From Parachlorella kessleri (lineage: Eukaryota > Chlorophyta > Trebouxiophyceae > Chlorellales > Chlorellaceae): 64,000 nt of DNA. The notes below the pieces were generated by a model. It searched no databases. It was not told the origin of the DNA and saw only the letters and a list, made by a program, of their open reading frames with translations. The DNA lies in contig BBXU01002253.1 in the NCBI GenBank assembly GCA_001598975.1, forward strand, positions 1 to 64,000, given 5' to 3'. The translations under genes were made by a program, and so were the position numbers. The number at the start of each line of letters is the position of its first letter. Position 1 is the stretch's first letter. This document shows positions 1,771 to 63,952 of the stretch, piece by piece.

Positions 1771-3957
1771 TGCATGGTGCTTTGTGGGGAGGGACGGGAG
1801 TGACAGGGAGGCCATGGGCTGCCGGGGGCGCAGGAGGCCGCAGGCACGCAGTACCAGCCCAGGGTCAGCACGTGTCTGTTAACCATCGTCGATGGAGCCG
1901 AATTTGTGCAGATTGTCCAAGCTGAAACAAAGGCCGGAGTGATAGTCCATGAAAGCTTGAAACACCACCTTCCCCCCCTGCGCAGGTTTGGGAGCGCGAC
2001 GAGCCCTCCTCCGCGGCAGCGCCCTCGGCAGACGACGAGGCAGGCGGCGCAGCAGGCACAGCAGGCGGGGCGCGCGACAGCGTGCAGGTGGTGGTGACCG
2101 ACGTGGTGGACGCCAACACCTTCTGTGTGCAGCTGGCGGAGGAGCCGCGCGTGGAGTGGGTGGCGGAGCAGCTGGCGGGGCTGGGGCTGGACGAGGCACA
2201 GCCGCCGCCGGTGAGGACTTTGACATTTCTAGGCCTACAAGTGCGGAGTGTTTACTGTTTCCAGGCATGTCTCAGTCTGGCTGAACGGAGAGACAGGTGC
2301 CGCCCATGTGATCTGGGGATGAGGGGTGGTTCTGCTCCTCTGTTGCCAAGCGTGTGTGCTCAGACTGCTTCTGCTGCTCTGGGTTGTGGTGCAGGCGCCG
2401 CTGAAGAACGGCGACAAGTGCATCGCGCAGTTCACCGGCGACGGGCAGTGGTACCGCGCGACAGTGGAGCGGGCGTACACGGCAGACCCGGTGAGACTGA
2501 GGTTCTGTGGTTTTCACTTGCCATTGAGGCGGCGGCAGTTGTGTGAAACGAGACAAAGCAGTGCACAGATGGGCAGCTGGCAGGGGTATCGTTGCAGCAG
2601 CGGGAGGTGCCGTAGACACAGTGCGCGCCGTGAGTATATAGTAACCGTCGTCACCTACGGTCATACCTCAAGGCTGCAACAGTTTCGGCCTTGTGCTTCA
2701 CTCCGCCCTTCCCACATGCTGCTGCTACAGACCGCGCCCCAGTATGACGTGCTCTTCATGGACTTTGGCAACCGCGAGCGGGTGAAGGGTGCAGCCACCC
2801 GCCCCATCACCCCCGCGCTGGCGGCGGTGCCGGCGCAGGCACACTCTGCCACCCTGGCATTCGTCAAGGTGCGTCTTAGCACGGATCGGTGCCACGCGCC
2901 CCATTGGCCTGGGGCCTACGCCGGCACAGGTATAGCTTTTGATTGCTTGTGGCATTGTGAAGGCGAGGCGCGGTACCGGGGGCGACATAACGCACTGGCA
3001 ACATTTAACGGATCGTGGGATGGCTACAACGCGCTGTAAAATGCAGCTGGGAGCAAGCCTTTGGTCCTAAGCAGCAACAAAGCGAACCGCTGGGTTTCTG
3101 GACCAGCGCTCCAGAGATCCTTCCCTCCATTGGAGGGTCAGGCTGAGTGCGAGCAGGGCATGGGGGCTGCCCAGTTGCTTAGCGAGGTCAGGTGCTCCTG
3201 GCCGCAATGATATTGTTAGGTTCCATGTCCCTTCTTTCTTTGCTTGGTCCTGCAGGCTCCTGGCCTTGACGACGAGTACGGCGTGGAGGCTGCCCAGTTC
3301 CTGAGTGAGCTGCTGGGCAGCGGGCGGCGGCTGCCGGCTGTGGTCGAGCGGCGCGAGAAGCTGGCGGGCGCGGGCGGCAAGTCCTGGGGCCAGCAGGTGA
3401 GGAGGCCTTACCGGAGGTAGGCTCCGTGTGGCCTGCGTTGACCAAGCGGCGGCAGTGACTGGAGGGCAGCAGGGAAGGTTTGCTGAAGTAGCCGCCTGCC
3501 TCTGAGGGATTGGTAGTCGGGTCGTTAATGTCTTTCTAGTGTGCGTCCTGATCAAGGGCTGTCCAAGTGGCCACCCTGCTGGCCAAATTGTTTGTTCCTC
3601 GGTGGCTGCGCCAGTGGACAACATGCAACCGGCTGCTTGCCAGTGCTTATGAGTCTGCCATTGTCCCTGCAGGCACCCCAGCGGCTGCACCTCACCGTCT
3701 TCGAGCGCGCTGGCGACGTGGCCAGCTCCGCCAACGCGCGGCTGCTGGCAGCTGGGCTGGCCCGCTTTGCCGCCCCAGCAGGCGCAGCAGCAGGCGGCGG
3801 GGAGGGCGGCGCCGGCGAGGTGGTGGAGGCGCTGCGTGGCTGTGAGGAGACTGCTAAGCGCAGCCACGTGGGCATGTGGCGCTACGGCGACCCGGGCGAG
3901 GACAGCGACCAGGATGACTACCCTGCCCTGGGCGGCCGGGGCGGCGGCAAGCGCTGA
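311..3957 (+). CDS. SND1: Tudor-SN / staphylococcal nuclease domain protein 1 (3' part)
   Basis: This is the 3' portion of a Tudor-SN gene; upstream exons lie left of the window. Exons: 311-434, 715-901, 1121-1174, 1529-1738, 1986-2210, 2395-2490, 2731-2868, 3256-3396, 3673-3957, with phases agreeing throughout. The first part is a staphylococcal-nuclease-like (OB) repeat with 'LPFLQRAGRMQGVVEYVLS' and 'SGVRCP', followed by 'RDVEVEVETVDKAG', both typical of the fourth SN repeat. A Tudor core follows with 'VLFMDFGNRE' (the aromatic cage region), and a last split SN repeat ends at 'SHVGMWRYGD'. The family binds structured and modified RNA and acts in RNA decay, stress granules and splicing, mainly in the cytoplasm. 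The final residues are Gly/Arg rich. Intron 4 begins with a (GT)15 tract, and intron 7 contains a decayed copy of the start of the next exon. Family identity is very secure; the exact 5' extent is unknown. Confidence 0.93.
1494..1525 (+). repeat. TGCTG pentamer microsatellite at a 3' splice site
   Basis: About six copies of a TGTGC/TGCTG pentamer run directly into the acceptor of Tudor-SN exon 4 (CTGCAG ending at 1528), so the repeat supplies the polypyrimidine region of the splice site. Confidence 0.85.
1739..1768 (+). repeat. (GT)15 microsatellite forming a 5' splice site
   Basis: Fifteen GT dinucleotides follow exon base 1738 directly. The first GT is the donor of Tudor-SN intron 4, so repeat-length variation would not destroy the site but could offer alternative donors. 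Confidence 0.9.
3155..3190 (+). other. Decayed copy of a Tudor-SN exon start inside intron 7
   Basis: In the frame GAG TGC GAG CAG the intron reads 'GMGAAQLLSEV', matching 'GVEAAQFLSEL' of the true exon at 3256-3396. The best core is the shared GGCTGCCCAGTT followed by CT.AG.GAG. It lies about 115 bases before the real copy and looks like a remnant of a tandem duplication. It could be chance, but both the peptide and the base match are good. Confidence 0.6.
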
Positions 3958-61440: not shown

Positions 61441-63952
61441 TATGACCAACGGCTGCACAATTGCATAAAGATGCCGTTGTATAGCAAGGTCTGGGTACAG
61501 CAGTACGGGGAGGACCCTGCCACCACAGCTCAGGCTAGTTTGAGCGAACTGCAGCATGAGTCGAGGCGCCTGTCGTACTCGGAGACCTTCGAAAGCGAGG
61601 GAGACCCTTCCTTGGTTTATAACACACCCAAGCAGGTATGTAATGCTCAGCTATCAGGAGCGGGCTTGGGTGGGAGTCAAAGGCTTTCAAAGTCTTTGCC
61701 CCTTTCCTGGCACGGTGTCTCTTTCGTGACGTCAAGGGAAAACGTTTGCAGCATGCTATGAGCACTGTTTTGAGCCCCCCTCAAGCTGCTGAGTACAGAC
61801 ACTGCCTGACCTTAAGGCAGCAGGCCCTCGTGTAGCCCAGGGGAGAGCAGTCCCCCACCGATGGCCATGCCGATGCTGTGTGCAGTGGCACAAGGCCTTC
61901 ATAGAAGAGCTCCTGCGGCCCGAAGAGTGGCGAGCCCCCGAGGGTAGGGATCCCCCCTTCAAGCCATGTGACATCCTGCGGCTGTGTGACCTGGTGGAGG
62001 CCCGGCTTCAGGCCGAGCCCACTCTTTTGGAAGTCCATGGTGGGTCAATGCCAGGCCTGTGACGGACTTGAGTCTGTCACAGGTCCACAAGGCCGGAAGC
62101 AGATATAGCCAGTGGTGGGTGATGGTTTGCGCGGCTGGAGCAGAGTTTTACCGCTGGGGTTGCATGGTGGACAAGACACACTTGCATGTGCGGGCCGGGA
62201 CCACCGCAGCTGCGTGATGAGCATTAGGCAGGCCTGTCTGATCATGAACATACCCAACACGATAGCGGCTTTTAGCTGCTCGTTCCATCAAACCTGTGCC
62301 CTGACCCTGCTGCAGCCCCTGTGAAGATCATTGGTGACATCCACGGCCAGTTTGGGGACCTGATGCACCTCTTCCGGGTCTACGGCACGCCCTCTCGCCT
62401 GGGGGACATCAGCTACCTTGACTACCTGGTGAGGAGAGCAGCGGACTGTCATTAAGAGTGGTAGAAAGGCTTCAGCCTGTGGATGAATTGGGTCACTAGT
62501 TACATTGACACACTTGGCTTCCACAAGCTCTTGAGTGGCCTCGTGGCACCAACCCTTCCGGTATGTGCAGGGGCTCCTTCTATCCCTGCTCTTCTGGAGG
62601 TCGTTTTTTTTGTCCCAATTGTGCACCACTATTACTATAGGGATTGCCACCCTGCCGCCATCGAGCAGACACCTAGACCACACAGCCGCTAGATGATAGG
62701 CACTCCCCTGTCTGTCCCTCTGCAGTTCCTGGGGGACTATGTTGACCGGGGCGAGCATAGCCTGGAGACCATCAGCCTGCTGTTTGCGCTTAAGGTGGAG
62801 TTCCCCACCCAGGTCCACCTCTTGAGGGGCAACCACGAGGTGAGCTGAGCCAATCCCTAGCAATACAGCCTCCTTTTGGGCATGTCTCTGGCATCTCAAA
62901 ATCACTGATACCCCTCGCTATCCCCCTAAGTGCGAAGTCTGCCAGCCAGGTGCAACTTTCCAGGGGCAGCTATGAGGTGAGCCCGCCCCCACAGTGCTTG
63001 GGTGAGTGGCCGAGAGCTGGCACACCTTCAAATAATGGCACGGGTTGGAGACTCTAAACTACACACTACCACGGCAAACCCCTCTGCAGGTCAGGGGGGC
63101 AACACCATATCCAGGAGGCATGCTTTGGAATCATTGTCACTGATTTAGTGATTGCCGACCCAACCCTTGCCTTGCAGATCAGCGAGGTCAACTCCAAGTA
63201 TGGCTTCCTGGCAGAGTGCAAGGGGCGGCTGGGGCCAGTGGAGGGGTGGAAAGTGTGGCGCCGCATCAACGAGGTGTTTGCCTGGCTGCCGCTAGCAGCA
63301 CGCATTGATGGCAAGATCCTCTGCCTGCACGGAGGTCAGTGAGTGTTCTGAGAATCTGTTTGCAGGGTTTGCACTGGCTGCCTTGCGCGGCATGCATGGT
63401 GTGGCACCTTGACGGGTCAATAAGTGCAAAGAGAGCGCTGCTGCATGGGTGATTTCCTCTGCCATTGCAAGTGCACCACGGGACAGACAGACCCACGCAG
63501 CTAGGCATGCATGGCTGCCCTGGAAGGACAGGATTGGGGCATGCTCGTTCATGGCCATTAGTTTGCATGCAGTGATCTGGCATGATGTTTCCTGGTCATG
63601 ATGTTGCCGCCCACCACAGCCGGTGCCTCACCTGAAGCCAGGGTTACAACCAGCTGGCCCTGGTTGATGCCACCACCACACTTACTGAACTGCCAAGCAG
63701 GGAGAACATCGTACTAGCCGTAATGTTTTCTGTTGTGTAGGCATCAGCGACAAGCTCACCACTTGCAGCCAGATAGCCGACATCCAGCGGCCCCTCTACT
63801 TTGACGAGGCCCCTACCCCCTCCTCCCAGCTGGCCTACCAGCTGCTCTGGAACGACCCCAACTCCACGGATGCAGTGTATGGCTCGCATGCTAGCAGCCG
63901 CGGCAGCGACATACAGACGTTCAGCGCACAGCAAGTGGAGGCTTTCTGCGAG
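61441..63952 (+). CDS. PPKL/BSL-type serine-threonine phosphatase, partial
   Basis: Exons seen: 61441-61635, 61886-62039, 62316-62428, 62726-62839, 63178-63334, 63741-63952, continuing past the right end. The PPP-family metal and catalytic motifs are intact: 'GDIHGQFGDL', 'GDYVDRGEHSLET', 'LLRGNHE', and 'RINEVFAWLPLAARIDGKIL' with 'CLHGGISDKL'. The segment 'LSELQHESRRLSYSE' plus 'FIEELLRPEEWRAP' matches the linker before the phosphatase in plant BSU1/BSL and other Kelch-phosphatases. Those enzymes act in brassinosteroid signalling in land plants; their algal role is unknown. The N-terminal Kelch propeller usual for the family was not found, and there is little room for it before DCC1. A decayed copy of an exon end lies in the intron after 62839. 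Confidence 0.88.
62950..62990 (+). other. Decayed copy of a phosphatase exon end and donor
   Basis: GGGGCAGCTATGAG|GTGAGC near 62963-62982 matches GGGGCAACCACGAG|GTGAGC at 62826-62845, the end of the exon carrying the 'GNHE' motif; bases to the left also align loosely. The offset is about 137 bases. Confidence 0.65.

What the first reader, a model, noticed from the sequence alone, without database searches (positions are those of the whole stretch)
3155..62990. Recurrent tandem duplication of exon edges, including splice sites, across at least six genes
Seven introns carry a second copy of the adjacent exon border. Donor-side copies occur in VPS26 (four copies), Yippee-like, amine oxidase and phosphatase. 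Acceptor-side copies occur in Tudor-SN, KAS I and the VPS26 last exon. The offsets I estimated range from 54 to about 138 bases. Copy ages differ, from near-identical to heavily decayed, so the process looks continuing. An established model says that tandem duplication of a segment holding AG|GT can create an intron or an alternative site at once. This genome may be doing so often.
Basis: partly seen in the sequence, partly recalled or inferred. Interest (0 to 1): 0.78.

Follow-up and report, generated by a model that had tools for sequence, protein, structure and literature searches.

The report
Local tandem duplications across exon edges
Introns of this green alga often hold a second, decaying copy of the exon edge beside them, left by ordinary short tandem duplications; it is a real and recurrent pattern that lengthens introns and leaves spare splice sites, but it does not show introns being created.

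Summary
All seven claimed pairs are present, and none is reached by any of 1000 shuffles. The pattern recurs outside the window: in 314 kb of this algal genome, with gene models from a purpose-built gene finder, I find 28 exon-edge/adjacent-intron duplications for 519 introns, 10 in the window and 18 outside. Exons match their own introns more often than other introns (16 of 822 comparisons against 0.32 expected).

In 0 of 508 introns does repeat distance equal intron length at score 12 or more, the mark of an intron born by AG|GT duplication; the duplications lengthen existing introns. Copying of splice sites follows from geometry: a tandem unit reaching from exon into intron contains the edge. 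Preference for edges is not established: units under 80 nt fit neutral placement; longer ones exceed it (22 of 25, P 0.0024 or less; 0.005 by a second estimate), but great age or shorter ancestral introns could absorb this. Near-identical copies are nearly all short-unit.

The best single case is VPS26: a 54-nt array with four identical in-frame donors. Which is used is unknown.

The parts
54163..54384 (-). VPS26: four copies of a 54-nt unit made of the exon end and the first 14-17 nt of the intron (split read by eye); four identical donors TAG|GTGGGT, last exon base at 54348 (gives the protein without insert), 54294, 54240 or 54186; all four ends leave an open frame
   Evidence: the aligned homologues lack the insert
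53674..53802 (-). VPS26 acceptor edge 53674-53708 and intronic copy 53770-53802, offset 96
   Evidence: 0 of 1000 shuffles
1685..1879 (+).
   Evidence: SNase and TUDOR domains
3150..3328 (+). Tudor-SN: intronic copy 3150-3205 of exon start 3273-3328, offset 123
31115..31296 (+). beta-ketoacyl-ACP synthase: intronic copy 31115-31214 of acceptor edge 31197-31296, offset 83; the downstream copy is the exon in the model that aligns to a solved synthase
41799..41948 (+). Copper amine oxidase donor edge 41799-41829 and intronic copy 41918-41948, offset 119
49302..49462 (+). Yippee-like gene donor edge 49302-49324 and intronic copy 49440-49462, offset 138 (weakest pair)
   Evidence: Yippee-Mis18 25.3 bits against a cut-off of 26.6, no family with the raw gene-finder model
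56654..56858 (+). DCC1 donor edge 56654-56724 and intronic copy 56784-56858, offset 134; the copy's GT is lost
57925..58132 (+). DCC1: intronic copy 57925-57981 of acceptor edge 58080-58132, offset 154
15777..16064 (-). Unnamed gene model at 14996-17311: donor edge 16004-16064 and intronic copy 15777-15840, offset 224
   Evidence: the first 60 residues of the model match no Pfam family
62791..62982 (+). BSU1-like protein phosphatase donor edge 62791-62845 and intronic copy 62927-62982, offset 137; copy keeps GAG|GTGAGC

Best explanation
Short stretches of this genome (about 30-225 nt) are duplicated in tandem fairly often and more or less anywhere in genes. When a unit spans an exon-intron border, the gene survives if the spliceosome keeps using the outer site (first donor or last acceptor): the protein is unchanged, the intron grows by one unit, and the inner edge copy, splice site included, decays as neutral intron sequence. 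Exon-internal units are mostly removed by selection, and intron-internal ones become unrecognisable sooner because both copies drift. Exon-edge copies are therefore what remains visible longest. Shown: the copies, their own-intron specificity, full-unit length in 11 of 28 cases, no sign of coding constraint on the copies. Inferred: which site is spliced, removal of exon-internal units, the repair or slippage origin, and the survivorship history.
For: Excess of local repeats over block shuffles (43 against 0-3) and of exon matches in own introns over other introns (16 of 822 comparisons at score 30 or more, 0.32 expected). In 11 of the 28 exon-edge events the alignment covers at least 0.9 of the offset (for example 101 nt for offset 83, 98 for 96, 36 for 35, 52 for 50, 76 for 78), as tandem duplication requires; the other 17 cover 0.26-0.76. 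Offsets are not tied to reading frame (mod 3: 10, 6, 11 of 27). Mismatches are not significantly concentrated at third codon positions (0.21, 0.20, 0.26 at positions 1-3; P 0.14), so the copies do not look like coding exons. Only 2 of 49 events are exon-internal, while 12-22% of random units would be. Models that use the outer site align through the copied edges to solved homologues: SQD1 over 392 residues without a gap, phosphatase (39), amine oxidase (40), KAS (38). For units under 80 nt, 6 exon-edge against 11 intron-internal events is what neutral placement gives (0.31-0.33 expected).
Against: For units of 80-225 nt exon-edge events dominate (22 of 25; 17 of 19 without stretch L013, which holds 5) beyond a constant-rate neutral simulation with expected share 0.57-0.58: the binomial P is 0.0024 at share 0.6; with a second estimate of the share (0.63) it is 0.005, or 0.010 without L013. 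At simulated ages of 0.2-0.3 substitutions per site the share is 0.68, which still leaves P near 0.01-0.03; only at 0.3-0.4 (0.94) or with introns about 0.7 times as long (P 0.096) does the excess go, and neither is shown independently. No RNA evidence for use of the outer site. VPS26 keeps four equal donors, so there the outer-site rule is untested.
Confidence: 0.7

Rival explanations
1. Duplication is really biased to exon edges, for example through breaks tied to transcription or splicing there, so that edge copies arise more often than chance placement gives.
For: 22 of 25 long-unit events are exon-edge against a share of 0.57-0.63 expected; without the hot stretch L013 it is 17 of 19, P 0.010.
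Against: Short units show no bias (6 of 17). Introns 0.7 times as long raise the expected share to 0.75, P 0.096, and old ages raise it to 0.68-0.94. Detection favours pairs with one conserved copy.
Confidence: 0.15
2. Rogers-type intron gain: duplication of an exonic AGGT segment creates new introns or new splice junctions at once.
For: Copies carry GT or AG in 18 of 22 pairs; tandem duplication is a described way of intron gain (PMC3443670 and PMC4974935, passages seen).
Against: 0 of 508 introns have repeat distance equal to intron length at score 12 or more, 2.5 expected from shifted controls; in all 27 events with a complete intron the offset is 62-998 nt shorter than the intron.
Confidence: 0.05
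3. The inner copies are working alternative splice sites, kept by selection.
For: 18 of 22 inner sites keep their dinucleotide, against about 0.6 at neighbouring exon positions; 7 of 22 inner sites score as well as or better than the outer one. VPS26 has four identical in-frame donors.
Against: Alignments that end just past the border favour matches there; 15 of 22 outer sites are stronger; most offsets would shift the frame (17 of 27 not a multiple of 3); the KAS copy runs into a stop codon (read by eye).
Confidence: 0.1

Closest known systems
[quoted passage not shown] vertebrate ATP2A1 and potato RdRp cases, as told in passages of PMC4974935 and PMC3443670)
   Same: Short direct tandem duplication inside a gene that copies splice signals
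   Different: There the duplication makes a new intron; here it lengthens an existing one and adds a spare donor or acceptor
Potato RdRp duplication of an intron-exon border (PMC4974935, passages seen)
   Same: Unit includes the 3' part of an intron and the start of the next exon, as in the KAS case
   Different: In potato a cryptic donor was activated and a new intron arose; no sign of that here
Fission-yeast 24-bp AGGT arrays in SPOG_01682 and SOCG_00815 (as told in PMC4974935; original paper not seen)
   Same: Several tandem copies of a unit with AG|GT, like the VPS26 54-nt array
   Different: There an intron spans the copies; here each copy offers a donor for the same downstream acceptor
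Break-induced small tandem duplications (CST/Pol alpha-primase fill-in and end joining, PMC8355091, abstract and outline seen)
   Same: Small tandem duplications as an outcome of break repair
   Different: Mechanism not tested here; most copies are too decayed to read the junctions

Membership tests
Tandem genomic duplication (local) | Direct repeats with alignment length about equal to spacing | tested here: met
   Met in 11 of 28 exon-edge events (at least 0.9 of the offset aligned: for example 101/83, 98/96, 52/50, 50/46, 36/35, 76/78, 120/128); 17 align over 0.26-0.76 only, as expected if the intronic part has decayed but not proof
Tandem genomic duplication (local) | Own-locus similarity above that to other introns | tested here: met
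   16 of 822 against 0.32 expected
Intron gain by tandem duplication (Rogers) | New intron equals the duplicated unit (repeat distance = intron length) | tested here: not met
   0 of 508 introns at score 12 or more; 3 at score 10, where shifted controls give 9.5
Intron gain by tandem duplication (Rogers) | Intron absent from orthologues | not tested
   This genome has no relatives in the collection; intron positions in relatives were not compared
Alternative splice-site pair | Both sites carry the splice consensus | tested here: met
   18 of 22 inner copies keep GT or AG, 4 have lost it; VPS26 four identical donors
Alternative splice-site pair | Both sites are used in RNA | not testable with these tools
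   No RNA reads available

The most novel reading that the evidence does not exclude
In this trebouxiophyte lineage exon edges are preferred sites of tandem duplication, so that about one intron in twenty carries a spare copy of its own exon edge; these copies are a standing supply of alternative sites, and VPS26 shows the end state: a ladder of four in-frame donors that can add 0, 18, 36 or 54 residues beside a conserved segment of a retromer subunit.
Probability: 0.13. Interest if true: 0.7.

Novelty: new member of a known kind. Interest (0 to 1): 0.4.

Why it matters
It gives a countable case of how introns grow and how spare splice sites arise: 28 natural duplications of exon edges, at different stages of decay, for 519 introns in 314 kb. 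If the edge preference held genome-wide among recent duplications, it would point to a mutational link between splicing or transcription and tandem duplication. The VPS26 donor ladder is a ready test of how a spliceosome chooses among identical 5' splice sites 54 nt apart.

Tried and rejected
Rejected: intron creation; chance similarity; assembly artefact for diverged copies, since in the 22 long-unit exon-edge events the copies differ at 14-33% of aligned sites; an artefact stays possible for the identical 35-nt pair at L020:3115 and other near-identical short units, and short-read collapse could hide recent long-unit copies; alternative or mutually exclusive coding exons (no significant third-position bias); mixed organisms in the assembly (the 24 sampled sequences are mostly alike: G+C 0.55-0.63, G+C at third positions 0.69-0.84; L023 stands out with 8 introns of median 694 nt and TGCAG in 0.38 of them).

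Led nowhere: the first gene-finder run, with a misaligned acceptor matrix, gave only 10 introns and was replaced. Paper searches aimed at duplicated splice sites or exon-edge duplication, some with green-alga terms, listed nothing on point (one search found no paper); PMC2791625 (Gao and Lynch) and PMC3265369 (Hellsten) are not held, so I know them only as cited by others. (rRNA search) did not complete.

Rows dropped: 61 events became 49 by gapped score under 19, identity under 0.66, low complexity or double counting; exon-edge events went from 32 to 28, and the Yippee pair (score 17) is among the four dropped.
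Full report
What was asked. I checked the pairs, tested the claim on more of the same genome, and asked what neutral duplication would give.

Data and gene models. The window is positions 1-64000 of contig C1213 of a 50.9-Mb, 1642-contig genome. The named proteins that score highest against its VPS26 are from trebouxiophyte green algae such as Auxenochlorella, Coccomyxa and Chlorella (the class name is recalled); the species is not identified. 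I wrote a hidden Markov gene finder, trained without supervision on these sequences. It yields 519 complete introns, median 265 nt, with donors AG|GTGAG and a strong acceptor TGCAG. Several models hold up: the 13-exon SQD1 model in L017 aligns over 392 residues without a gap to a solved SQD1, 1i24; the amine oxidase part aligns over residues 2-646 of the 649 submitted, the phosphatase over 53-369 of 375 submitted, the beta-ketoacyl-ACP synthase over 13-416 of 420, with about nine residues fewer than the solved chain at one place. Weak points: the Yippee-like gene was fused to the amine oxidase, VPS26 was split in two, and some small predicted exons are doubtful, for example inside the copy at L021:385-458.

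The observation. All seven pairs exist at the stated places. Exon against own intron, each scores above all 1000 shuffles, as do four further pairs of the window; for this check I chose the stretches around the known matches. A blind scan for local direct repeats (offset 25-450, low complexity removed) gave 43 events in 264 kb against 1, 2, 3, 0, 0 and 1 rows in six block shuffles.

The catalogue. After gapped extension and filtering, 49 of 61 events remain: 28 exon-edge (exon in one copy, adjacent intron in the other), 14 intron-internal, 5 intergenic, 2 exon-internal. Of the 28, 10 are in the window (115 introns) and 18 outside: 17 in eight further stretches and one in the continuation of the window's contig. 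By the intron lengths they fall in 26 different introns, about one in twenty. Fifteen are donor-side and 12 acceptor-side, plus the VPS26 donor array. They are clustered: 11 of the 24 sampled sequences have no event of any kind, while L013, an M1 aminopeptidase gene, has eight events, five of them exon-edge, and L017, the SQD1 gene, three.

What the events are. In 11 of 28 the aligned length is at least 0.9 of the offset, which is what tandem duplication gives; in 17 it is 0.26-0.76, mostly the exonic part with a little intron. In tandem geometry a unit that starts in an exon and ends in the intron must contain the border, so copying of the splice site is no separate finding; in 5 of the 28 the border is not in the aligned part (four of the rows marked 'no edge' outside and within the window plus Tudor-SN 3150). 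Offsets ignore the reading frame (10, 6 and 11 of 27 for remainders 0, 1 and 2). Mismatches in exon-intron columns are not significantly biased to third codon positions (0.212, 0.195, 0.255; P 0.14), so the intronic copies show no coding constraint. Of 22 pairs whose border lies in the alignment, 18 inner copies keep GT or AG and 4 have lost it; the outer site is stronger in 15, equal in 5, weaker in 2. Dinucleotide retention at the first intron bases is 0.80-0.82 against 0.43-0.77 in the exon and 0.35-0.71 deeper in the intron, but alignments that end just beyond the border favour this, so I read no selection into it.

Intron creation. If a duplicated AG|GT segment had made an intron, repeat distance would equal intron length. 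Among 508 introns none reaches score 12 at that distance (2.5 expected from shifted controls) and 3 reach score 10 (9.5 expected). In all 27 events with a complete intron the offset is 62 to 998 nt shorter than the intron. These duplications lengthened introns that already existed.

Is the edge preferred? I simulated neutral tandem duplication on these gene models with decay of introns and conservation of exons, and scored it with the same detector. For units under 80 nt the expected exon-edge share of exon-edge plus intron-internal events is 0.31-0.33; observed 6 of 17. For 80-225 nt it is 0.57-0.58; observed 22 of 25, where the binomial P is 0.0024 for a share of 0.6 and 0.00008 for 0.5. An independent approximation gives share 0.63 and P 0.005, or 0.010 for 17 of 19 without L013. 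This excess is the result most against a plain neutral account. Two ordinary causes can weaken it. At ages of 0.2-0.3 and 0.3-0.4 substitutions per site the expected share is 0.68 and 0.94, because intron-internal pairs are no longer recognised; at 0.68 P is still about 0.01-0.03, so only the older ages remove it. If introns were 0.8 or 0.7 times as long when the duplications happened, P is 0.037 or 0.096. The decay level fits the first only in part: median core identity of the long-unit exon-edge events is 0.80 against 0.84 in the constant-rate simulation. Numbers are small and partly clustered, so I leave edge preference open at low probability.

Age. Copies above 0.95 identity are in the short-unit class (for example VPS26, L018, L020, L023), except one 17-nt exact core in the VPS26 acceptor pair; long-unit exon-edge events have gapped identities of 0.67-0.86. 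Recent long-unit duplications may also be missing because assemblers collapse them; I cannot test this.

VPS26. With the first donor (last exon base 54348) the protein runs through like its homologues. Three more 54-nt units follow, each with the donor TAG|GTGGGT; choosing any of the four donors leaves the frame open and adds 0, 18, 36 or 54 residues. The best solved VPS26 (one alignment shown of 12 hits) and the 11 homologues that I aligned of 91 found have one copy of the segment. All six matches to the VPS26 family in the genome lie in this gene. The three added units share one amino-acid change against the first, so they seem to derive from one duplicate that was then amplified (read by eye). 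Whether one donor or several are used cannot be told from DNA.

Known relatives. Tandem genomic duplication as a source of introns is described in PMC3443670 and PMC4974935 (passages seen); the potato case also copied an intron-exon border, and fission-yeast arrays of a 24-bp AGGT unit resemble the VPS26 array (as told in PMC4974935). Break repair by fill-in and end joining makes small tandem duplications (PMC8355091, abstract and outline). The listings of my nine paper searches showed no survey of exon-edge duplications in green algae; I saw only the listed rows, and most subscription papers are not in that library.

Verdict. Observation confirmed and recurrent in this genome; interpretation partly supported. 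It is a known mutation type seen with unusual clarity, with one attractive test case in VPS26. How the rate compares with other algae is unknown.

Noticed in passing
window 1739-1769: The donor of a Tudor-SN exon lies at the first base of a (GT)15 repeat, so the intron begins with a long GT run (exon end).
   Followed up: no
window 45918-46109: Three-copy 64-nt tandem array wholly inside an amine oxidase intron.
   Followed up: partly
window 5089-12107: Two tandem copies of a related multi-exon gene, fused into one model by the gene finder (similarity seen by eye).
   Followed up: no
L013:1-8821: An M1 aminopeptidase gene holds five exon-edge duplications and further repeats in 10 kb, the densest stretch sampled.
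   Followed up: partly
all sampled loci: Very strong 3' splice-site consensus: in the first working model T 0.79, G 0.90, C 0.96 before AG; 38-100% of introns per sampled sequence end in TGCAG.
   Followed up: no
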